From contig NZ_AULZ01000014.1 in the NCBI RefSeq assembly GCF_000422545.1, positions 62,001-126,000 of the forward strand: 64,000 nt of DNA, read 5' to 3'. The translations under genes and the position numbers were made by a program. The notes under the pieces were generated by a model. The model was given only the letters and a program-made list of their open reading frames with translations, did no database searches and was not told the DNA's origin. This document shows positions 49,286 through 60,354 of the stretch, one piece after another. Numbering within the stretch: position 1 is the first letter of the stretch; the number at the start of each line of letters is the position of its first letter. The DNA comes from Desulfocurvibacter africanus subsp. africanus DSM 2603 (GTDB taxonomy: Bacteria > Desulfobacterota > Desulfovibrionia > Desulfovibrionales > Desulfovibrionaceae).

Positions 49286-49732
49286 ACGGACAGGCCCAAA
49301 CTCCGCAAGTCCCTGGAGCCCTGCAGGCTGACCGGGGCAGCCCTGGTCATTGCCAAGCTTGACCGGCTCTTTCGCGATGCCCACTTCCTTCTTGGCCTAC
49401 AGAAATCCCAAGTGCGCTTCGTATGCGCAGATATGCCCCAGGCGAACGAGTTGACTGTTGGCATCATGGCCCTGGTTGCAGAGGAGGAACGCAAGGCCAT
49501 CTCCAAGCGCACCAAGGAAGCGCTGGCTGCGGCCAAGGCTCGTGGTGTAAGGCTAGGGTGTCCGAACGGGGCGCAGCATTTGCGGAAGTACGTTAATGCC
49601 GCTGGTGTCGAGATTCAGGGGCTGACACGTGCAAATGCCATAGCCCCGGAATTGAATCGCCAGCGGATTGCAACGCCTCGCGGCGGTAAATGGTACGCGG
49701 CATCTGTATCCAGATTGCTGCAACGTCTTTGA
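49286..49732 (+). pseudogene. Serine recombinase (resolvase/invertase), 5' truncated
   Basis: The readable part is TDRPKLRKSLEPCRLTGAALVIAKLDRLFRD...VRFVCADMPQANELTVGIMALVAEEERKAISKRTKEALAAAKARGVRLGCPNG, then an HTH-like tail TPRGGKWYAASVSRLLQRL. The catalytic N-terminal Ser segment is missing: an in-frame stop (49283-49285) precedes TDRP and no resolvase-like start is found upstream. A plausible relic of the island's entry machinery. Its end is 40 bp before the NtrC-type gene. Confidence 0.8.
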
Positions 49733-49772: not shown

Positions 49773-51107
49773 ATGGGCAAACGCTCTGCCTTGATTGTGG
49801 ATGATGATGCCAACCTGTCCACAACGTTTACATTCCTCCTTGATGAGCGGGGATATACAACTTTGACCGCGAATCAAGGCAGGCTGGGCATTGAGGCATA
49901 TGACTCCAGCTTGCCTGACGTAGTCTTTCTTGATCTCAAGCTACCTGACATGAGCGGCCTCGAAGTGCTGGAGGAATTAGGCAAACGAAGCCACAAGGCC
50001 AGCATTGTGATGATAACCGGCCATGCTTCGGTGGATACGGCTGTCTCGGCAATCCGAAAGGGGGCGTTCGATTATCTGGTCAAGCCGTTCTCGGCAGCCC
50101 AGGTGGAGCACGTCCTGGACATGATCGAGAGGTTTCGCAGCCTGGAAACCGAAGTGAAAAGCTTGCGATCGGAGCTGAACGGCATAGTGCATCAGGGTGC
50201 GTTCCTGACCAGGAACGCACAGGTGAAGAAGGTCTTGCAGATTGCAAGACAGGTAGCGGAAACCAAGGCCAGCATTCTCATCACTGGCGAGAGCGGCACG
50301 GGCAAGGGGTTACTGGCACGGCTTGTCCATGACTGGAGTCCTCGCTCTGAGCAGCCATTCGTCACGGTTGACTGCACCGCTCTCCAGGAGAGCCTACTCG
50401 AAAGCGATCTTTTCGGCCATGTTAAAGGAGCTTTCACTGGAGCCGTGCGTGACAAGCCAGGCAAGGTCGAGTCCGCCGATGAAGGCACGCTTTTCCTCGA
50501 CGAGGTGGGGGAGCTGTCGCCAAGCCTGCAGGCCAAGCTGCTGCGTTTCCTCCAGTCCAGAGAGTTTGAGCGAGTCGGTGACACGAAGGTGCGCACGGTG
50601 GATGCGCGTGTGATCGCAGCAACCAACCGGAACCTGGAGGAGATGGTACACGAGGGCCTATTCAGGCAGGATTTGTATTTCCGCCTCAATGTGGTTGAGC
50701 TGTCCATGCCGCCTCTTCGGCAACGTCTGGACGACATTCCTGTGCTTGCGGACCATTTTCTTGATCATTTTCGAAATATGCATGGAAGAGATGTGAGAGG
50801 TTTCGCTCCAAGTGTAATAAGCCAACTGACCCGCTATCCATGGCCGGGCAATGTCCGGGAATTGGCTAACGTCATCGAGAGGGCTGTAGCCATGGCTTCG
50901 GGGCCGCAACTCACACCTGAAGACTTTCCCGAAGGAGTTCGCCGTCCCAAACCAATTGCCGGTATCCCCCCGACCCTTGAGGAACTGGAGCGCGAGCACA
51001 TCAGCTCGGTACTCGTGCAGACTGCAACCATGGATGAAGCCGCGCGCATACTCGGGATCGATCCCGCCACGCTGTGGCGCAAGCGCAGGAAGTATGGCCT
51101 TGGGTAA
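49773..51107 (+). CDS. NtrC-family sigma-54-dependent response regulator
   Basis: 444 aa from the ATG at 49773, preceded by AAAAGG. The receiver has Asp54 in VVFLDLKLPDMSG. The AAA+ domain has Walker A GESGTGKG (172-179), the sigma-54 contact loop GAFTGA (219-224) and Walker B-like LFLDEVGEL. The C-terminal Fis-type helix-turn-helix is MDEAARILGIDPATLWRKRRKYGL. It lies 141 bp before the operon it probably controls and just upstream of two palindromes and a sigma-54 promoter. The cognate kinase is likely the one encoded at 51836. Confidence 0.9.
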   Translation: MGKRSALIVDDDANLSTTFTFLLDERGYTTLTANQGRLGIEAYDSSLPDVVFLDLKLPDMSGLEVLEELGKRSHKASIVMITGHASVDTAVSAIRKGAFDYLVKPFSAAQVEHVLDMIERFRSLETEVKSLRSELNGIVHQGAFLTRNAQVKKVLQIARQVAETKASILITGESGTGKGLLARLVHDWSPRSEQPFVTVDCTALQESLLESDLFGHVKGAFTGAVRDKPGKVESADEGTLFLDEVGELSPSLQAKLLRFLQSREFERVGDTKVRTVDARVIAATNRNLEEMVHEGLFRQDLYFRLNVVELSMPPLRQRLDDIPVLADHFLDHFRNMHGRDVRGFAPSVISQLTRYPWPGNVRELANVIERAVAMASGPQLTPEDFPEGVRRPKPIAGIPPTLEELEREHISSVLVQTATMDEAARILGIDPATLWRKRRKYGLG

Positions 51108-51144: not shown

Positions 51145-51211
51145 ATGAGTCGGGCTGACTCCCCTGGGTTATCTTGATTTAAGTATTTTAAATATAAAAA
51201 TATTTCTTCTG

Positions 51212-51225
51212 GGCACACTTCCTGC
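51212..51225 (+). promoter_or_regulatory. Sigma-54 promoter of the Trk operon
   Basis: GGCACACTTCCTGC keeps the GG and GC doublets at -24/-12 spacing (10 bp between) against the consensus GGCACGNNNNTTGC. The following CCTGCC/GGCAGG hairpin (51221-51238) ends in the AGGAGG ribosome site of the first gene at 51249. Confidence 0.75.
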
Positions 51226-51248
51226 CTATAAAGGCAGGAGGTTACCCG

Positions 51249-51827
51249 ATGTCTCCCGTAGCACCCCCAAAATACCTGCTCTACCATGAAGGTGAAGTGC
51301 CCCCGACTGCCGGTCAGAGCTTGGAAGTCGTCACGAGTCCTGCCACATACCTGCATGAAGCCAGGGAGAAGGACGTCGCGGCAGTGTTCATATCCTTCCA
51401 CGGCCTGGGACAAGAGAAGAGAGATCTCGCCATCGAGCTATGCAGGATATTGGACAGCCTGGAGAAAGATAGGAAGCCATTGATCTATGTGCTTCTCACA
51501 AGCCCCAATCGGGACATCCTGCAAGCGCTTTCAGGGGCTGGCGTTACGGGGGTTCTTTACTGTGACCCTATACAGCTTGCCTTGCACGCGCTCCATCCTC
51601 AAAACATGACTGCGGCCTTGAAGTGTTCCCGAAGTCCCGAACAGGAGTTGGCCTCGATTTGCCCACACCTGCTCGCCGAACTTGCGGGAGATGGCCAGGA
51701 CATCCACTTCTGCCGGGCGTACCGGAGCATCATGGTCGTCAACAAGACGAGAATCCGCTCCTTTTGCGTGGACCGGTACTCGCACTGCCAGCAATATAAA
51801 AATCCGGTATTCTCCCAAGATGAGTAG
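51249..51827 (+). CDS. Hypothetical protein, first gene of the Trk operon
   Basis: Not recognised. 192 aa, strong AGGAGG site. Residues 1-120 show alternating hydrophobic strands (KYLLYHEGEV, VAAVFISFHGLG, KPLIYVLLTS, GVTGVLYCDP) reminiscent of a pseudo-receiver without the phospho-acceptor Asp. The C-terminal 50 residues hold four cysteines (CPHLLAEL, HFCRAYRS, RSFCVDRYSHCQQY), possibly metal or redox binding. No signal peptide. Its place ahead of the kinase suggests a sensory or adaptor role; that is inference. Confidence 0.65.
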   Translation: MSPVAPPKYLLYHEGEVPPTAGQSLEVVTSPATYLHEAREKDVAAVFISFHGLGQEKRDLAIELCRILDSLEKDRKPLIYVLLTSPNRDILQALSGAGVTGVLYCDPIQLALHALHPQNMTAALKCSRSPEQELASICPHLLAELAGDGQDIHFCRAYRSIMVVNKTRIRSFCVDRYSHCQQYKNPVFSQDE

Positions 51828-51835
51828 GCTACCCC

Positions 51836-53680
51836 ATGGCTGAACTTTTTGGGTTGCGTTCGTTCCGGGTGCGAATCCTCCTGGGTTATGGCGCGGCCAT
51901 CGTCATTATCGCCATCGTCTTCGGGTGGTCCGTGACGAACGTGCGAACGCTCGGGCTGGCGTCTGAGTCCATACTCAAAGAAAATTACAAGTCCATCCTC
52001 GCCGCCGAGAACATGATCAACGACCTGGAGCGCCAGGACAGCCTGCTCCTTTACGAACTCCTCGGCATCAACCCGGCAACTTCCGAAGCCTTTCGCGCGA
52101 TGGAGAGCGATTTCCTGCAATGGCTCGGCAAGGCCAAGGACAACATCACCATCGAGAGTGAGGTCGCACTGCTTGAGAAGCTTGAAGCAGGATACCTAGC
52201 CTTTCTGGGCAATGCACATGGCTTTTACCAGAAGCCTACGGCCGAGAGAGCCACCTTCTACCAGACGGAAGTCCAGCCGTTGTTCTTTGCCGTCAGACAG
52301 TCCTGTGTCGATCTGCGGGAGCTGAATCAGGAGGCCATGGTCCAGGCCAGCGCCCAGGCGCAACAGCTTGCCTCCAAGGCGGTACTGCGCATGGTCGCCG
52401 CGGGAGCGGCGGTAACGGTGATCGGGCTTGTGCTCAGCATCTTCCTGGCCCGCCGTCTGGCTAGTCCGGTTGAGCGCATGCGCGAGGCTGCCAAGCGTAT
52501 CGCCGATGGCGACTATGGTGTGCAGGTGCCGGTCTCGGGACAAGATGAACTCGCGCAACTCGCGGGCCAGTTCAATTCCATGGCCAAGCGGCTTGAGCAG
52601 TATCACGCCATGAACATCGGGAAAATCCTCGCGGAGAAGCACAAGACCGAGGCGATCCTGCAGAGTGTGGATGATGGCATTGTAGTCGTTGACCCGGAGT
52701 TCTCGATCATGAGCATCAACCTCATGGCCGGGAGTATCTTCAATGTGAGTCCAGAAGAGGTCAGCGGCAAGCACGTGCTTGAGGCGATCAGAGATGAGCG
52801 GCTCTCCAAGTTGATCAAGCAGGCCATCGAAACTGGCCAACAGCCTGAACTTGATGAGCAGGAAAGCACGCTGTCCGTGTCTCGCGGGGAGAAGCAGGTA
52901 TACTATTCCTTTTCGGTTGTCCCGGTGCACATCGGCCATGGCCCGGTCATTGCCGCAGTTCTGTTGTTGCGAGACGTTACCCGCCTGCGCGAATTGGACC
53001 GGCTCAAGTCGGAGTTCGTAATGACGGCCTCTCATGAGCTGCGCACGCCACTTACCAGCATCGGCATGAGCATCGATCTGCTCAAGGACAAGGCCGGGAG
53101 CAAGCTCAGCGATCGAGAGCGTCAGCTTCTCACCGTGGCCCAGGAAGATGTGCAACGCCTTAAGGCGCTCGTGAACGAGTTGTTGGACCTCTCGAAGATA
53201 GAGGCCGGAAAGCTGGAGATCGACTTCGAGCGCGTCCCCTTGCCGCTCATCTGCGAGAAGACCGCCAAGATCATGGCCACCCAGGCGGAACAGGCTGGTG
53301 TGGAACTGGCTTTCAGTTGCGATGAGGGGTTGCCTGAAGTCAGGGTTGACCCGAACAAAATCACCTGGGTGCTGGTGAACCTCGTGGGCAACGCCCTGCG
53401 TCATACGCCCGAAAATGGGCATGTGCGGGTTGCCGCCAAGCAAGCGGGCCGATTCGCGCACGTGTCCGTCAGTGATGACGGAGAGGGCATTCCACTGGAA
53501 TTTCAGACCAAGATCTTCGATAAGTTCGTGCAGGTGAAGTCTCGGAGGACCAGCAGTGGGACAGGCCTGGGGCTGGCCATCTGCAAGGAGATCGTTCGCG
53601 CTCACGGTGGGACGATCTGGGTGGAGTCCACTCCGGGAGAGGGGACAACCTTCACCTTCACTGTCCCGATCGCGGAATGA
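51836..53680 (+). CDS. Membrane histidine kinase (HAMP-PAS)
   Basis: 614 aa. One membrane span near residues 12-35 (RILLGYGAAIVIIAIVFGWSV), a helical sensor domain of about 150 residues, a second span about 185-207 (MVAAGAAVTVIGLVLSIFLARRL), HAMP, PAS (about 270-385, SVDDGIVVVDPEFSIMSINLMA), HisKA with FVMTASHELRTPLTSIGMS and HATPase (NALRHTPENGHV, SDDGEGIPLEFQ, GTGLGLAICKEIV). Its end overlaps the next ORF start region. It probably phosphorylates the NtrC-type regulator and/or the receiver-TPR protein. Confidence 0.9.
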   Translation: MAELFGLRSFRVRILLGYGAAIVIIAIVFGWSVTNVRTLGLASESILKENYKSILAAENMINDLERQDSLLLYELLGINPATSEAFRAMESDFLQWLGKAKDNITIESEVALLEKLEAGYLAFLGNAHGFYQKPTAERATFYQTEVQPLFFAVRQSCVDLRELNQEAMVQASAQAQQLASKAVLRMVAAGAAVTVIGLVLSIFLARRLASPVERMREAAKRIADGDYGVQVPVSGQDELAQLAGQFNSMAKRLEQYHAMNIGKILAEKHKTEAILQSVDDGIVVVDPEFSIMSINLMAGSIFNVSPEEVSGKHVLEAIRDERLSKLIKQAIETGQQPELDEQESTLSVSRGEKQVYYSFSVVPVHIGHGPVIAAVLLLRDVTRLRELDRLKSEFVMTASHELRTPLTSIGMSIDLLKDKAGSKLSDRERQLLTVAQEDVQRLKALVNELLDLSKIEAGKLEIDFERVPLPLICEKTAKIMATQAEQAGVELAFSCDEGLPEVRVDPNKITWVLVNLVGNALRHTPENGHVRVAAKQAGRFAHVSVSDDGEGIPLEFQTKIFDKFVQVKSRRTSSGTGLGLAICKEIVRAHGGTIWVESTPGEGTTFTFTVPIAE

Positions 53681-53700: not shown

Positions 53701-54387
53701 ATGCCCGATAGCCAGGACCGCATTCTTGTTGTCGATGACGAGAAGAATATCCGCATCACCCTCTCCCAGGCACTGGAGGACCTGGCTGAAGTGGACACGG
53801 CGGTGAACGGCGAAGAGGCCCTGGAAAAAATCGGCCGGCAAGCCTATCAGGTGGTGCTGCTCGACCTAAGGATGCCGGGCATGGACGGAATGGAGGTGCT
53901 CCGGCGCATTGCCGAGCAACGCCCGGAGATCAAGTTCGTGATTATCACGGCACATGGCACGGTGGACAATGCTGTCGAAGCCATGAAGCTCGGCGCGCTG
54001 GACTACCTGCAAAAGCCGTTCACCCCATCCGAGGTCCGAGAAGTCGTCACGCGCATCCTGAATCGTGAAGCGCTCGACGAGCACCAGCATGCGGAGTTCG
54101 ACCATCTGGTTGAACTGGCCCTCAGATCGATCACGGAGCGCCGTTTCGAGGCTGCCATGGAACTGCTGCACAAGTCGGTCGCCATACAGCATGACAGCCC
54201 GGAAGTCTTCAATCTCATCGGAGCCATTCACGAACTTCAGGGTGAGCGCGAGGAGGCGCTCAAGAACTACCGGAACGCCTACTGGCTGGCGCCATCCTAT
54301 GCCCCTTCGCGTGACAACTTCGAGCGACTCAGCGGCATACCCAGTTCGAGCGGAACAATCGATCTGGGCGACAGGCAAAGGAAGTAG
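53701..54387 (+). CDS. Response regulator with receiver and TPR-like output
   Basis: 228 aa from the ATG at 53701, preceded by AAAGGAGGAGAAGAC (a start eight codons upstream is possible). The receiver has Asp55 in VVLLDLRMPGMDG and Lys in DYLQKPF. Instead of a DNA-binding domain, residues about 135-215 form TPR-like helices (FEAAMELLHKSVAIQHDSPEVFNLIGAIHELQGEREEALKNYRNAYWLAP), so the output is likely protein-protein contact, perhaps with the Trk subunits encoded just downstream. Confidence 0.85.
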   Translation: MPDSQDRILVVDDEKNIRITLSQALEDLAEVDTAVNGEEALEKIGRQAYQVVLLDLRMPGMDGMEVLRRIAEQRPEIKFVIITAHGTVDNAVEAMKLGALDYLQKPFTPSEVREVVTRILNREALDEHQHAEFDHLVELALRSITERRFEAAMELLHKSVAIQHDSPEVFNLIGAIHELQGEREEALKNYRNAYWLAPSYAPSRDNFERLSGIPSSSGTIDLGDRQRK

Positions 54388-54389
54388 CC

Positions 54390-54833
54390 ATGGATCTATT
54401 GGGTATGCTCTCGAAAAAGAGTTTCGTGGTAATCGTCGGGTGCGGCAGGCTCGGCTCGCACATCGCGAATACTCTCTCCAAGGAGGGGCATAGCGTGGTC
54501 GTGGTTGATCTGCGCCAAAAGTCCTTCCAGGAGCTATCGGGCGACTTCAGCGGTTTTTCCATACCAGGCGACGCCACGGAGTTCGATACCTTGCGCCAGG
54601 CCAAGCTGGACAAGGCCGACGTGCTCATCGCGGCCACCGAGAGCGATACGGTGAATATGCTGGTAGCTCAGGTCGCAGCCAAGATATTCAAGGTCAGTAA
54701 GGTATTGGCCAGGGTATTTGACAAAGATCGGCAGGACCTCTGCACCCGCCTTGGCATTGCCACCGTCTGCCCCTCCACGGTCGTAGGCACCATTTTTCTC
54801 AATTCTCTTTTTGGCATCCAGCGGGAGATGTAG
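54390..54833 (+). CDS. TrkA-type K+ channel regulatory subunit, short
   Basis: 147 aa with one RCK/TrkA-N Rossmann domain: VVIVGCGRLGSHIANTLSKEGHSVVVVDLRQKSF (GxGxxG and Asp at the end of beta 2), PGDATEFDTLRQAKLDKADVLIAATESDTVNMLVAQ. It lacks the TrkA-C domain. Ribosome site GGAAG; stop (TAG) directly followed by the ATG of the second TrkA. Probably forms a ring with the next subunit on TrkH. Confidence 0.85.
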   Translation: MDLLGMLSKKSFVVIVGCGRLGSHIANTLSKEGHSVVVVDLRQKSFQELSGDFSGFSIPGDATEFDTLRQAKLDKADVLIAATESDTVNMLVAQVAAKIFKVSKVLARVFDKDRQDLCTRLGIATVCPSTVVGTIFLNSLFGIQREM

Positions 54834-55508
54834 ATGGCTTCACTGCGGATCATGCTCGTGGGAGGTGGCAAGCCGGTCTACTTCCTGGCGCGTTCGTTCA
54901 TATCCAAGGGTCATGGCGTGACCATCGTAAACAGTGACCAGGAAGAATGCGCCTGGCTGGCCCGTAAGCTCAAGGCTCTGGTGGTGCATGGCGACGCAAC
55001 TCAGCCCCGCCTGCTCGCGGATGCGGGTGTCCAGGACGTGGACGTCATCCTGGCTGCCACCCTGCGGGATGAGGACAATCTAGCCATATGCCAGAGCGCG
55101 GCCAAGCAGTTCGGCGTCCGGCGCACCCTGGCCCTCGTGAACGATCCCGAGTTGGAGGCGGTTTTCCATGATCTCGGAGTGACCGATGCCTTCTCCATGA
55201 CGCAGGTTCTCACCGGGCTTATCGAGCGCAGGGTCGAAACCGAAGGAGTGCTCAACCTGCTTCCCTTGGGCGGCGGCAAGGTCAACCTCACTGAAATCGT
55301 CCTCGACGAGGACGCTCCCGTAGTAGGCAAGACCCTCATGGATGTGCGCATGCCGGAAGACAGTCTCGTAGCCTGCATCTTCCGCGAGGGGAATCCGCTC
55401 GTGCCCCGAGGCTCGACCATGCTCTTGGCCAGGGACCGGCTCGTGATCTTGTCCCTGCCCGAAAACTACGGGCAGATTCTGCGCATGCTCACCGGGGAGA
55501 AGGGGTAA
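54834..55508 (+). CDS. TrkA-type K+ channel regulatory subunit, two-domain
   Basis: 224 aa: RCK-N domain with a degenerate nucleotide loop (IMLVGGGKPVYFLARSF, GGGKPV instead of GxGxxG) and VVHGDATQPRLLADAGVQDVDVILAATLRDEDNL, then a TrkA-C domain (about 140-224: VNLTEIVLDEDAPVVGKTLMDVRMPEDSLVACIFREGNPLVPRGSTMLLARDRLVIL). The altered loop suggests it may not bind the same nucleotide as its partner. 0-bp spacing to the preceding gene. Confidence 0.87.
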   Translation: MASLRIMLVGGGKPVYFLARSFISKGHGVTIVNSDQEECAWLARKLKALVVHGDATQPRLLADAGVQDVDVILAATLRDEDNLAICQSAAKQFGVRRTLALVNDPELEAVFHDLGVTDAFSMTQVLTGLIERRVETEGVLNLLPLGGGKVNLTEIVLDEDAPVVGKTLMDVRMPEDSLVACIFREGNPLVPRGSTMLLARDRLVILSLPENYGQILRMLTGEKG

Positions 55509-55512
55509 GGAC

Positions 55513-57009
55513 ATGGGCTACCTTCCCGGTCCAGCTCTTCGTCTGAGGACCATGTTTTCCTATGCCGGCTTAATTTGGACGCTGGTGGGGCTGCTCATGC
55601 TCGCCTCGCTGGCCGTCCTGCCGTTCGCTGACGGGGAGGCCGCTTGGTCTTGGGCATTTCTGTATCCAGCCTCGGCACTCCTTCTCGGAGGACTGACGAC
55701 CTGGCGCGTGGCCCGACCTCGCACGTACGTGACTCTAACTCTACAGGACGGCGGCGTGGTCGTCCTGCTCGGTTGGATTGTCTGCTGTCTGGCGGCTACA
55801 TGGCCCTTCCTGTCCATCCTGGACCTGACTTTCACGCAGGCGCTCTTTGAGACGGTCAGCGGGTTCACCACGACAGGATTGTCCGTGGTCGATGTCACCA
55901 CCGCTCCCAAGGTTGTCCTCTTGTGGCGCAGCCTTATGCAACTAGCGGGCGGCGCTGGCTTGGCCATCATCATGCTGGCGGCCATCGCCGGCCCAGCCGG
56001 GACCAGCCTCTCTGGAGCCGAGGGGCGCAGCGATCAACTTGCGCCCCATGTGCGTTCGTCCGCGACTCTGGTGCTGGTCATCTATTCCGCATATGCCCTC
56101 GCGGGCAGCCTCGCCTACCGCATCGCGGGCATGGAGTGGTTCGATGCCGTGAACCACGCCTTCGCGGCCATTTCAACAGGTGGTTTTTCCACCCGGCCGG
56201 AATCCATCGGCTACTGGAATTCGTCCGAGATTGAACTGGTCACCGTTGTGCTCATGATTCTTGGAAACCTTAACTTCGTGACCGCCTACCTCCTGCTCAC
56301 GGGCAAATGGCGATCCGTCTTAAAGAATGGCGAGCTGCGCTTTAGCCTTCTCCTCTTTCTTGCCGCCGCAGGCCTGCTCTTTTGGTTCGTTACCCATCAC
56401 GGCTACACCGGGCTGGGCAAGCAGGTGCGCGTGGCTCTGTTCGAAGCGGTTACCGCAGCCACGACAACGGGTTTCTCCACCGTGGGCTACACCGGATGGC
56501 CGGCCATCGGTTGGCTGGTCATGCTGCTGCTCATGCTCGTGGGCGGAGGCACCGGTTCGACCGCCGGCGGGATCAAGCAGTATCGGGTGTACCTGCTGAT
56601 CAAATCCGTGTGGTGGGAAATCAAGCGCGCGCTGCTGCCGCGTGGGAGTGTGCCCGCCGAGTCGATCTGGATGGGCGAGCGACCGAAGTTCATTGATGAC
56701 TCCGACCTGCGCAGGGCGACATGCTTTGTGACACTCTACCTGGTGTGCTTCACTTTGGGCGTCGGCATTATGGTCGCGTACGGCTATCCACTGCGGGAGA
56801 GCCTCTTCGAGTATGCTTCAAGCATCGGGACAGTAGGACTGTCCATCGGCATCACCTCGGCGGATGCTCCCCCGGCGGTGCTGTGGACCCAAATCATGGG
56901 CATGTTTCTGGGCAGGCTCGAATTCTTCATCGTGTTCATCGCTGCATTGCATGCAGGCAGGATCGTTCTCCCCATCATATCGAGGAGGAAACGACCTGCT
57001 CGATCGTAG
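55513..57009 (+). CDS. trkH: TrkH-family potassium transporter
   Basis: Pore-forming K+ uptake protein of 498 aa with four membrane-pore-membrane repeats. Filter-region glycines are visible in VSGFTTTGLSV, AISTGGFSTRPES, AATTTGFSTVGYTGWP and SIGTVGLSIGITS. The gating-loop-type GGGTGSTAGGIKQYRV is present in repeat three. Ribosome site GGGGTAAGGAC. Last gene of the operon; the stop lies 130 bp before the right island repeat. Confidence 0.92.
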   Translation: MGYLPGPALRLRTMFSYAGLIWTLVGLLMLASLAVLPFADGEAAWSWAFLYPASALLLGGLTTWRVARPRTYVTLTLQDGGVVVLLGWIVCCLAATWPFLSILDLTFTQALFETVSGFTTTGLSVVDVTTAPKVVLLWRSLMQLAGGAGLAIIMLAAIAGPAGTSLSGAEGRSDQLAPHVRSSATLVLVIYSAYALAGSLAYRIAGMEWFDAVNHAFAAISTGGFSTRPESIGYWNSSEIELVTVVLMILGNLNFVTAYLLLTGKWRSVLKNGELRFSLLLFLAAAGLLFWFVTHHGYTGLGKQVRVALFEAVTAATTTGFSTVGYTGWPAIGWLVMLLLMLVGGGTGSTAGGIKQYRVYLLIKSVWWEIKRALLPRGSVPAESIWMGERPKFIDDSDLRRATCFVTLYLVCFTLGVGIMVAYGYPLRESLFEYASSIGTVGLSIGITSADAPPAVLWTQIMGMFLGRLEFFIVFIAALHAGRIVLPIISRRKRPARS

Positions 57010-57929: not shown

Positions 57930-58898
57930 CTAGCCTCTGCCGCCGCTCCCGGCTGTGCGCCGGATCTTTATGGCGGAGTTGCGTTTGTACACACTGACCT
58001 GCTTCCAGGCGAAGACAAGCAGGGAGCAGGCCAGGACGACGCCCGCCTCCACGATCCAGCGCAACAACCCCTTGCCGGCAAGCCCCCAATTACCATACGC
58101 AGCCCCCATGCCTACAAGACAGGCCGAGGGTACCAGGGCCAGCGCGATCATGACCCCGGCTGTCAGCACGGACCTGTGGATTACCACGAGAACAGCCCCG
58201 GCAATGCTTGCGGTGATTGTTACCCACAGGGAGGGGCCGGAGATAGAGGTCCAATACGTGATGAGCACTCCGGCGGGTAGGTACGAGGAATGCTCATACG
58301 GCGTATCGATGCCTGTCAGGCGGAGGCCCAGCGAAGTCACGGCCGCGCCGAGGACCAGGGCCGCATAGCCCATGGCCGTGTGTGGCAGGCCCAGCCTCCA
58401 TGATCCACCTCTATTGACGATGCCCATGGCGATGCGCGTGATCGGCTCGAAGCCGGGCGCGATGAGCATGGCCCCAACTACGATGTGCAAGGCATTCGTT
58501 AGTATGCCCACGGCGGCGATCACCCCGGATATGGCCATGATCAGGAGTGAGTTCACTGTCATGTTGCTCTCGCGGGCCAGGGACATTTCCATTTCTTCCC
58601 AGGATGCCTCGGTCCTGCCGCGCGGTATTTCCTCCTCCCACTCTTTGGAGACAAGTCCCATAGGCTGGCTTGTGAGCCAGGATCCGCCCGCCTCCTGTCC
58701 GATTCCGTGCCGGTCGAGCAGGCGCATGAGCTCGTGCAACGCCTGAGTCGTGACCTGCACGGTGATGACATCCCCAGGCGGCTGGACGGATATGCCGCGC
58801 TCCACCTTCAGGCCGATAACGCTTAGGCTCCCTTGGATGTCCCGCACAATTTCATCGCTCTTGCCAGCGGACGCCGTTATCTCGACCACGCGTATCAT
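57930..58898 (-). CDS. DUF389 membrane protein
   Basis: 322 aa from the ATG at 58898 (MIRVVEITASAGKSDEIVRDIQG); the frame is open 32 codons further. About 110 residues of soluble N-terminal ACT-like domain precede SNMTVNSLLIMAISGVIAAVGILTNALHIVVGAMLIAPGFEPI, the signature of DUF389 proteins, and five to six membrane spans. Members are proposed transporters or sensors of unknown substrate. Lies outside the island, beyond repeat copy 4. Confidence 0.8.
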   Translation of the reverse strand: MIRVVEITASAGKSDEIVRDIQGSLSVIGLKVERGISVQPPGDVITVQVTTQALHELMRLLDRHGIGQEAGGSWLTSQPMGLVSKEWEEEIPRGRTEASWEEMEMSLARESNMTVNSLLIMAISGVIAAVGILTNALHIVVGAMLIAPGFEPITRIAMGIVNRGGSWRLGLPHTAMGYAALVLGAAVTSLGLRLTGIDTPYEHSSYLPAGVLITYWTSISGPSLWVTITASIAGAVLVVIHRSVLTAGVMIALALVPSACLVGMGAAYGNWGLAGKGLLRWIVEAGVVLACSLLVFAWKQVSVYKRNSAIKIRRTAGSGGRG

Positions 58899-59614
58899 GC
58901 TCGCCTCCCGTGCGGGTGTTACCTCTGCCACAGCTGTTTGCCCATTTGAAAAGGCGACATGCACGCGGCGGAGAATCCAAACAGGATAGCCCATCCCTCC
59001 GAGTGTCGCGAGAAGGAAGACGAAACGCCCAGTCCTGGGAAATGTTCGGGAACGTTCTCACAGAGCTGAGGGCAATAGGGCTATGGGACTCGCGCATCGA
59101 TCCCCTTCCAAACCCCTATTGGAGTCCCCGGCCTGTCAGTTCCTTCGATTATTAAGGATTCAAATAATCACAGAGCTACACGGATGCGGCCTGTATTCTG
59201 AAATACGGGCCATAGTTAGCTCGTTGCTCACCTCCACTAGTTTGCCCGGTTGCCGTTTTGGTGGCCGGGCATTCTACATCCTTAGGGAGTCGCAGTATCC
59301 TTGAAATCACTGCACTCGAATGTTCCCAATCCCGTCCTCGGCCACGGTCGGATGATGCGGTATCGCATCCCTGCTGTGGTTCTAACTTTGCTCACTTGGT
59401 GGCCTTTCTTGCACCGGCCTTCCCAGACTTTCTCAATAAAATAAACTTGGATCCAGATATCTGGCTCAAAGTAACATTTGTGGCATTGGGGTATGGGCAT
59501 GGTAGCTGGTTAGCGCGTGAGGACCATGTAGGCAATGAGAAGGTCGGGCCTAAGGTCGAAGTGATCACCTATGATATTAACGCTCCCTGCCGTAATTATC
59601 AGGATTGATCCCGC
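58899..59614. other. Intergenic region, probably decayed
   Basis: About 700 bp. A plus-strand frame near 59353 begins MMRYRIPAVVLTLLTWWPFL, like a signal peptide, but stops after about 30 codons. An adjacent frame continues KINLDPDIWLKVTFVALGYGHGSWLARED to 59608, which may indicate a frameshifted small secreted-protein gene. Not recognised and not called as a gene. Confidence 0.35.
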
Positions 59615-59860
59615 TTATGGGACCAAAGCGGCATACAGCGTCTGACGACTGATGCCGTACTCCTGGGCCAATCCCTTCTTCGTCTCGCCTTTTGCGACCC
59701 TCGCCTTGATCTCCTCGACTTGGACTGGAGTGAGAGCCTTGGCTCGTCCCATCTGCTTCCCGGACTTCTGAGCGGCCCTGATGCCCTCTCGCTGCCTCTC
59801 TTTGATGATCGCCCGCTCGAACTCAGCAACCGCGCCGATGATCTGGAGCAGGAGCGGTGG
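59615..59860 (-). pseudogene. Serine recombinase C-terminal fragment
   Basis: Reads LLLQIIGAVAEFERAIIKERQREGIRAAQKSGKQMGRAKALTPVQVEEIKARVAKGETKKGLAQEYGISRQTLYAAL: the long E helix and Hin-type helix-turn-helix of a resolvase/invertase. The catalytic N-terminal half is absent; upstream codons to 59935 do not match. It is a different subfamily from the fragment at 49.3-49.7 kb. Confidence 0.8.
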
Positions 59861-60354
59861 CATCAAAGTCGTAGCGCATACCTTATGACAGTTGAATGCC
59901 CCCCACGGGGGGAAACGATATGGAATTGAGTTCATATCCCCGTTTCACATTTTTCCCCCAAATGATGGGTTGATATCCTTTAGGCGATCCTTGCCGTTGC
60001 CATTGCAGGTTTGAGGCATTATCGAAGCCCTTCAAGTCTAAAAGCACTTCTAAAATCATATCAGGCTGAATATAACCGGTAGCCACGATTCGACCTTTCG
60101 AGGTCTATCGACTTGGAGGAACCGGACTGGACTGGCAATCATCATGGGCAAACAGGACATCGTAAGCGGGCGGCTAACTGCGTTGGGACTCCTATTGTCA
60201 GCGTCTCGCATGCCGATGTTCCGAATGGGAACACCAAGCTGATGATAGAAAAAGTTGCTCAAAGCGGTTGGGGTTCATAGGTGTCGAGGCGCTTATACTT
60301 GGGTTCCCAAGCAACCGAATCTCAACGAAGGAGAGGATAGGCAAGAATCAGCTT
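59861..60354. other. Intergenic region before the hybrid kinase
   Basis: About 490 bp without a convincing gene. The kinase promoter should lie here; none assigned. Confidence 0.4.

What the first reader, a model, noticed from the sequence alone, without database searches (positions are those of the whole stretch)
53701..55508. Receiver-TPR regulator next to two unequal TrkA subunits
The response regulator has TPR-like helices instead of a DNA-binding domain and is followed at once by a TrkA lacking the C domain and a second TrkA whose nucleotide loop is degenerate (GGGKPV). This suggests direct phosphorylation-dependent control of the TrkH gating ring, besides transcriptional control by the NtrC-type protein.
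Basis: inference. Interest (0 to 1): 0.6.

Follow-up and report, generated by a model that had tools for sequence, protein, structure and literature searches.

The report
Receiver-TPR regulator of potassium uptake operons
A bacterial signalling protein that has a protein-binding tail in place of a DNA-binding one travels with genes for potassium uptake of several unrelated kinds, which suggests that it serves potassium balance in general and not only the one channel it sits beside here.

Summary
In detail: 53701-54387 encodes an intact receiver plus two TPR repeats and no DNA-binding domain, followed by an N-only TrkA (GCGRLG) and an N+C TrkA with a degenerate loop. That TrkA pair is a known type; its nearest solved structures are Thermotoga TM1088A/TM1088B, where A binds AMP and B does not. 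The same asymmetry occurs in loci without the regulator, so it is no sign of phosphorylation control.

New here: histidine kinase plus receiver-TPR is a recurrent cassette. Of 56 distinct loci, 43 have TrkA-TrkA-TrkH next, 10 have Ktr, Kup, Kdp or KimA/KimA-like genes instead, 3 have none in the fetched DNA. Of 20 control receiver loci, 1 lay near a potassium importer. The most conserved ligand-face residues of the TPR (E168, N171, E178, R209) are the same whichever transporter is there. A sigma54-type promoter lies between the NtrC-type and kinase genes in 30 of 36 loci tested; the window's own site is weaker (p 0.063).

So transcriptional control by the NtrC-type protein is plausible; TrkA-specific docking by the TPR is not supported. 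More likely the TPR binds a partner common to these loci, identity unknown.

The parts
49773..51107 (+). NtrC-type response regulator (receiver, sigma54 AAA+, Fis HTH)
   Evidence: Pfam Response_reg 3.6e-25, Sigma54_activat 2.8e-69, HTH_8 5.7e-10
51211..51226 (+). candidate sigma54 -24/-12 promoter GGGCACACTTCCTGCC (GG-N10-GC)
   Evidence: score 16 of 19, shuffle p 0.063 for this site alone; similar distance from the NtrC stop as in relatives, where 30 of 36 loci (this one included among the 36, not the 30) score p < 0.05. The consensus used is recalled.
51249..51827 (+). ORF192: protein with a weak receiver-like N part and four conserved Cys in the C part
   Evidence: no Pfam or NCBIfam hit at E <= 0.1; present in 21 of 56 loci; C138, C155, C173, C180 invariant in 18 aligned rows; model and weak receiver-like fold matches
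51836..53680 (+). sensor histidine kinase (HAMP, PAS, HisKA, HATPase)
   Evidence: HisKA 4.3e-19, HATPase_c 4.2e-32, HAMP 3.2e-18; a kinase hit directly upstream of the receiver-TPR gene in 52 of 56 loci
53701..54387 (+). receiver-TPR response regulator, the finding
   Evidence: D12, D13, D55 and K105 in 54 of 54 rows
54390..54833 (+). TrkA subunit 1, N domain only, GCGRLG intact (TM1088A-like)
   Evidence: TrkA_N 3.1e-26; 3l4b_A 1.7e-33
54834..55508 (+). TrkA subunit 2, N+C domains, GGGKPV (TM1088B-like)
   Evidence: TrkA_N 2.1e-21, TrkA_C 6.8e-13; 3l4b_C 8.1e-48
55513..57009 (+). TrkH potassium channel subunit
   Evidence: PF02386 1.7e-51; one of 3 TrkH-family matches in this genome

Best explanation
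This is a potassium-uptake cassette with two regulatory arms. Arm 1, inferred: the NtrC-type protein turns on the operon ORF192, kinase, receiver-TPR, TrkA1, TrkA2, TrkH from a sigma54 promoter between its own gene and the operon. Arm 2: the membrane kinase and the receiver-TPR form a cognate pair (inferred from their linkage). When phosphorylated, the receiver-TPR would expose or orient a conserved TPR groove that binds a partner. Because the groove residues and the pair are kept when the neighbouring transporter is Trk, Ktr, Kup, Kdp or KimA/KimA-like, the partner is most likely something common to these loci (the kinase itself or a general cell protein) and not the TrkA ring. The TrkA pair would work as in TM1088: an octameric ring with one nucleotide-binding and one nucleotide-blind subunit. 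Shown by sequence: domains, intact phosphorylation residues, linkage, conservation, promoter-like sites. Inferred: phosphotransfer, potassium as the signal, and the partner.
For: K+ uptake genes near 53 of 56 receiver-TPR loci: 43 Trk, 10 others (families checked; the L126 permease matches solved KimA at 1e-63). Control: 1 of 20 generic receiver loci, beside KdpABC, plus one weak 26% KtrA-like hit. Tree of 54 rows: the 13 rows without Trk need 9 changes, at least 3 forced by well supported branches; L126 (KimA) is sister to L145 (Trk), L127 (Kdp+Ktr) is sister to L118 (Trk). E168, N171, E178 and R209 are identical in 13 of 13 rows without Trk and in 52, 53, 53 and 52 of 54 overall. D12, D13, D55, K105 54 of 54. 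Kinase directly upstream in 52 of 56; NtrC-type gene upstream in 40 of 56; in 8 of those 40 the NtrC-type gene has a kinase of its own upstream, so the second kinase is free for the receiver-TPR. Sigma54-type site in the NtrC-kinase gap, p < 0.05 in 30 of 36. Precedent: NtrC-type DVU3334 controls Kdp in D. vulgaris (passages).
Against: 43 of 56 loci have the TrkA pair immediately after the receiver-TPR gene, which a direct interaction would also predict. 3 loci show no potassium gene (L107, L114, L130; L130 is a 3.2 kb contig). Kinase not directly upstream in 4 of 56: L109, L124 (contig starts at the regulator), L134, L180; in L134 only a sensor-like protein was hit there. Two genomes whose receiver-TPR lies by Kup or Kdp (G587, G658) carry a TrkA pair elsewhere, with a P-type ATPase, so action in trans is possible. 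In the closest receiver-identity bin (0.80-0.95) cross-group TPR identity is lower, 0.68 against 0.76, with 5 cross-group pairs. The window's own sigma54 site is only p 0.063, and 6 of 36 loci miss p < 0.05. The partner is not identified.
Confidence: 0.5

Rival explanations
1. One reading: the phosphorylated receiver-TPR docks on the unequal TrkA subunits and opens or closes the TrkH gating ring.
For: Immediate adjacency to TrkA1 in 43 of 56 loci; no DNA-binding domain. Control of TrkA by a phosphorylatable protein has a precedent in E. coli enzyme IIANtr (only the title of Lee et al. 2007, seen in the reference list of PMC9239096).
Against: 10 of 56 loci have another K+ importer and no adjacent TrkA pair, with the same TPR residues. 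In the 395-genome sample, 5 of the 14 genomes with a strong receiver-TPR hit gave no TrkA1 at E <= 1e-28 (G379, G433, G439, G445, G486; G486 is a fragment; at most 10 candidates a genome were scored). TrkH-linked TrkA pairs exist without it (L072, L073, L221, L222, L223).
Confidence: 0.2
2. The receiver-TPR binds the membrane part or tails of whichever K+ importer is next to it, as a general post-translational switch for unrelated importers.
For: Linkage to Trk, Ktr, Kup, Kdp and KimA/KimA-like genes in 53 of 56 loci; conserved TPR ligand-face residues. KdpD shows that one sensor can act on both transcription and activity of a K+ pump (abstract of PMC11018627).
Against: These importers belong to several unrelated families, so one conserved groove would need a shared peptide; none was looked for here.
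Confidence: 0.15
3. The receiver-TPR is a phosphate sink or feedback partner for the kinase or the NtrC-type protein, tuning only transcription.
For: Kinase directly upstream in 52 of 56, NtrC-type gene upstream in 40 of 56; a TPR protein bound to a receiver is known in RapH-Spo0F (3q15 appears among fold matches; a Rap paper seen in a search listing only).
Against: 16 of 56 loci show no NtrC-type gene upstream in the fetched DNA (some contigs end there); in 8 of 40 the NtrC-type gene has a kinase of its own.
Confidence: 0.15

Closest known systems
Two-subunit TrkA TM1088A/TM1088B of Thermotoga maritima (PDB 3L4B; PMC4380455)
   Same: N-only subunit with intact nucleotide motif next to an N+C subunit that does not respond to nucleotides; adjacent genes; TrkH partner
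   Different: The paper parts read mention no response regulator; here kinase, receiver-TPR and NtrC-type genes precede the pair
DVU3334 Kdp regulation in Desulfovibrio vulgaris (PMC3333781, PMC4641369; passages)
   Same: NtrC-type sigma54 activator controlling K+ uptake genes
   Different: Kdp and not Trk; no receiver-TPR beside it is mentioned in the passages seen
KdpD dual control (PMC11018627; abstract and outline)
   Same: Two-component sensor with both transcriptional and post-translational control of K+ uptake
   Different: KdpD acts by an N-terminal serine kinase domain, not by a receiver-TPR
Enzyme IIANtr control of TrkA (Lee et al. 2007; title in a reference list only)
   Same: A phosphorylatable protein regulating TrkA
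   Different: PTS protein, not a response regulator
REC-PAS-TPR and TPR-TPR-TPR-REC regulators of archaea (PMC5847659; one table passage)
   Same: Receiver joined to TPR
   Different: Other domain order and other organisms; no potassium link in the passage seen

Membership tests
Two-subunit TrkA (TM1088 type) | First subunit TrkA_N only, with GxGxxG | tested here: met
   GxGxxG in 41 of 41 linked relatives
Two-subunit TrkA (TM1088 type) | Second subunit TrkA_N plus TrkA_C, without GxGxxG | tested here: met
   0 of 41 linked second subunits keep GxGxxG in their first 30 residues
Two-subunit TrkA (TM1088 type) | Nearest solved relatives are TM1088A and TM1088B respectively | tested here: met
   3l4b_C 8.1e-48, 3l4b_A 1.7e-33
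Two-subunit TrkA (TM1088 type) | 4:4 octamer, AMP bound to the first subunit only | not testable with these tools
   known for TM1088 (sections read); no complex prediction available
Response regulator | Receiver with the acidic pair, phospho-acceptor Asp, Thr/Ser and Lys | tested here: met
   D12, D13, D55, K105 54 of 54; position 83 T in 49 and S in 5
DNA-binding response regulator (OmpR, NarL, NtrC, LytR types) | A DNA-binding output domain | tested here: not met
   no such Pfam family at E <= 0.1; TPR instead
TPR domain | Helix-turn-helix repeats with TPR consensus positions | tested here: met
   sub-threshold Pfam TPR hits plus model helices 109-145, 149-162, 167-179, 183-196, 201-210 and G174, A186, Y190, A193, P198 conserved; the consensus positions are recalled
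Receiver-TPR regulator that controls the TrkA ring directly | TPR binds TrkA | not testable with these tools
   indirect evidence is against it
Sigma54-dependent operon | -24/-12 element upstream with an NtrC-type activator | tested here: inconclusive
   30 of 36 loci p < 0.05, the window itself p 0.063; no expression data

The most novel reading that the evidence does not exclude
One kinase plus receiver-TPR pair is a portable, phosphorylation-switched adaptor that controls the activity of potassium importers of unrelated families (Trk, Ktr, Kup, Kdp, KimA) through one conserved TPR groove, so that bacteria of many phyla share a post-translational two-component switch for potassium uptake.
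Probability: 0.18. Interest if true: 0.8.

Novelty: new variant of a known kind. Interest (0 to 1): 0.5.

Why it matters
As far as I know (recalled), control of Trk, Ktr, Kup and KimA importers outside c-di-AMP and PTS signalling is poorly known. A two-component pair that stays with potassium uptake while the importer is exchanged offers a natural experiment: the same regulator beside several importer types. Its output is not DNA binding, so it points to a protein partner that can be fished out, and the conserved TPR residues give ready mutants.

Tried and rejected
Rejected: that the degenerate loop of the second TrkA is special to this regulator. It is degenerate in 41 of 41 linked and 5 of 5 unlinked TrkH-type pairs, and TM1088B was not stabilised by nucleotides. 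Rejected: that the receiver is a pseudo-receiver; the phosphorylation residues are kept. Rejected: that the linkage is a local accident; it recurs in several phyla.

Led nowhere: the first genome-contig scan with TrkA1 gave no relatives. Foldseek and VIA-align on the receiver-TPR model returned mainly receivers; the TPR part was not searched alone, so nothing is said about its nearest fold. I considered reading through a stop to fold receiver-TPR and TrkA1 as one chain and did not do it: without an interface score the result could not be judged. The second fold job went to ORF192. Co-variation between receiver-TPR and TrkA was not tried (too few sequences). Comparing linked with unlinked TrkA pairs gave no clear regulator-specific surface: 31 of 64 conserved TrkA1 and 27 of 82 conserved TrkA2 positions are kept in all 5 unlinked rows, but these rows are few and diverse.

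Rows dropped before the count of 56: L133 (same contig as L071), L070 (same contig as L119), L147, L149, L150, L177, L178 (copies of L117, L135, L114, L107, L130), L141-L144 (other proteins), L157 (fragment), L158 (TPR only). L123 and L124 were left out of the tree as partial (54 rows). Weak TPR hits were not followed. Of the 21 ORF192-type genes, 18 were aligned. Sampling bias: the searches were seeded with Trk-linked proteins, so the Trk share may be too high.

Full report
Observation. The four genes are as described. The regulator at 53701-54387 has a receiver with the phosphorylation residues and two TPR repeats with a cap helix; the last receiver helix runs on into the TPR part (helix 109-145). 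The two TrkA proteins match TM1088A and TM1088B of Thermotoga best among solved structures. In the published work the pair forms a 4:4 ring, AMP co-purified with TM1088A, and TM1088B was not stabilised by nucleotides (PMC4380455, abstract, first part of the text and sections 9, 11 and 15 read). So the unequal pair by itself is ordinary for this Trk type, which the authors expect to be fairly commonplace.

Reach of the cassette. In the window's family it is rare: in a search of 59 genomes, the own one included, one other has a full-length match (G031, 66% identity), and 5 of 297 genomes of the class, the own one included, have a strong match to the TPR part (E <= 1e-13). A scan of one genome per species with the TPR alignment gave 42 loci; phylum and class searches added more (searches added nothing distinct). 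After removing copies and non-orthologues 56 distinct loci remained. Record names and taxonomy place them in Thermodesulfobacteriota, Myxococcota, Aminicenantota, Acidobacteriota, Chloroflexota, Fidelibacterota, Planctomycetota, Rifleibacteriota, Glassiibacteriota and Pseudomonadota; most of the named records are metagenome bins, so single assignments may be wrong.

What stands next to it. In 43 of 56 loci the TrkA pair follows the receiver-TPR, with alignment ends 6 to 101 bases apart in 42 and 379 in one; in L108 and L137 the contig ends after TrkA1. Ten loci have other importers: L136, L154 and L179 KtrBA; L155 Kup; L156 Kup and KtrBA; L148 Kdp on the opposite strand; L127 Kdp and KtrB; L134 Kup, an APC permease and a KdpD-like sensor; L126 a KimA homologue (E 1e-63 to the solved KimA); L135 an APC permease with weak KimA similarity (1.6e-7). 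Three have no potassium gene in the fetched DNA (L107, L114, L130). Of 20 control loci, other receiver proteins found and fetched with similar flanks, one lay by KdpABC (L196), and one more had a 26% KtrA-like hit (L201). Counting L135 as unproven gives 52 of 56.

Exchange of importers. On a tree of 54 regulators the 13 without Trk (3 of them without any importer seen) need 9 changes, at least 3 forced by well supported branches. L126 (KimA) pairs with L145 (Trk) and L127 (Kdp, Ktr) with L118 (Trk), both with starred support; L179 (Ktr) pairs with L121 (Trk) at 92/93, not starred. At equal receiver identity, TPR identity between Trk and non-Trk rows is not lower than among Trk rows in five of six bins; in the sixth, with 5 cross pairs, it is lower. 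The residues at positions 2, 5 and 12 of the second repeat (E168, N171, E178), which by recalled TPR knowledge are ligand-face positions and usually variable, are 52, 53 and 53 of 54, and R209 in the cap is 52 of 54. All four are kept in 13 of 13 rows without Trk. This argues that the conserved TPR face meets something other than TrkA.

The reverse also holds. In the 395-genome phylum sample, 14 genomes have a strong receiver-TPR hit (E <= 1e-20) and 15 a TrkA1 hit at E <= 1e-28. Seven have both side by side. Two (G587, G658) have both but apart. Five have the regulator only (G379, G433, G439, G445, and the fragment in G486). Six have TrkA1 only: three TrkH-linked (G442, G480, G620) and three P-type-ATPase-linked (G364, G568, G576). 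At most 10 or 11 candidates per genome were scored, so absences are not proof.

Transcriptional arm. An NtrC-type gene lies upstream in 40 of 56 loci, and GAFTGA is found in 39 and GSFTGA in 1 of 41 NtrC-type sequences (the motif is recalled as that of sigma54 activators). In the gap before the kinase a GG-N10-GC element scores p < 0.05 against shuffles in 30 of 36 loci, uncorrected, at 102 to 138 bases after the NtrC stop in most; in the window p is 0.063. In 8 of 40 the NtrC-type gene has its own kinase upstream, which leaves the second kinase for the receiver-TPR. In D. vulgaris an NtrC-type regulator, DVU3334, is reported to control Kdp (passages of PMC3333781 and PMC4641369).

Mechanism. 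Best reading: a potassium two-component cassette with a transcriptional arm (NtrC-type, sigma54) and a second arm in which the kinase and receiver-TPR act through a conserved protein-binding groove on a partner common to these loci. Direct action on the TrkA ring is possible in the Trk loci but is not what conservation points to. Potassium as the signal is inferred from gene context alone.

Literature. Searches in the held open-licence library listed no paper whose title or abstract start describes a receiver-TPR regulator of potassium uptake operons; six papers were opened, mostly for passages or abstract, and subscription journals are mostly missing.

Verdict: observation confirmed; interpretation partly supported; a new variant of a known kind.

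Noticed in passing
window 51249-51827; L104:9956-10549: A protein family without Pfam hit in 21 of 56 receiver-TPR loci, in 14 of them just after TrkH, with a weak receiver-like fold (best Foldseek E 1.6e-3) and four invariant cysteines in 18 aligned rows; perhaps a metal- or redox-sensing potassium-operon protein.
   Followed up: partly
L224, L225, L226, L227, L228: A TrkA1/TrkA2-like pair next to a cation P-type ATPase (ORFs of 775-1033 aa) with no TrkH hit in the fetched DNA; in L224, L225, L226 and L228 the second subunit keeps GxGxxG. Possibly an RCK ring on a cation pump (Pfam for four of the five ATPases).
   Followed up: partly
window 49412-49732 (+) and 59615-59935 (-): Two resolvase-like fragments flank the cassette, whose orthologue is rare in the family; it may have been gained horizontally. 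GC content of the cassette itself is not unusual.
   Followed up: partly
L127, L134, L148, L180: KdpD N-terminal-like genes near receiver-TPR genes; the one in L148 is by NCBIfam closest to KdpD and to the KdpD-like non-kinase potassium sensor, below both cut-offs.
   Followed up: no
window 57930-58994 (-): A DUF389 protein gene converges on the TrkH gene.
   Followed up: no
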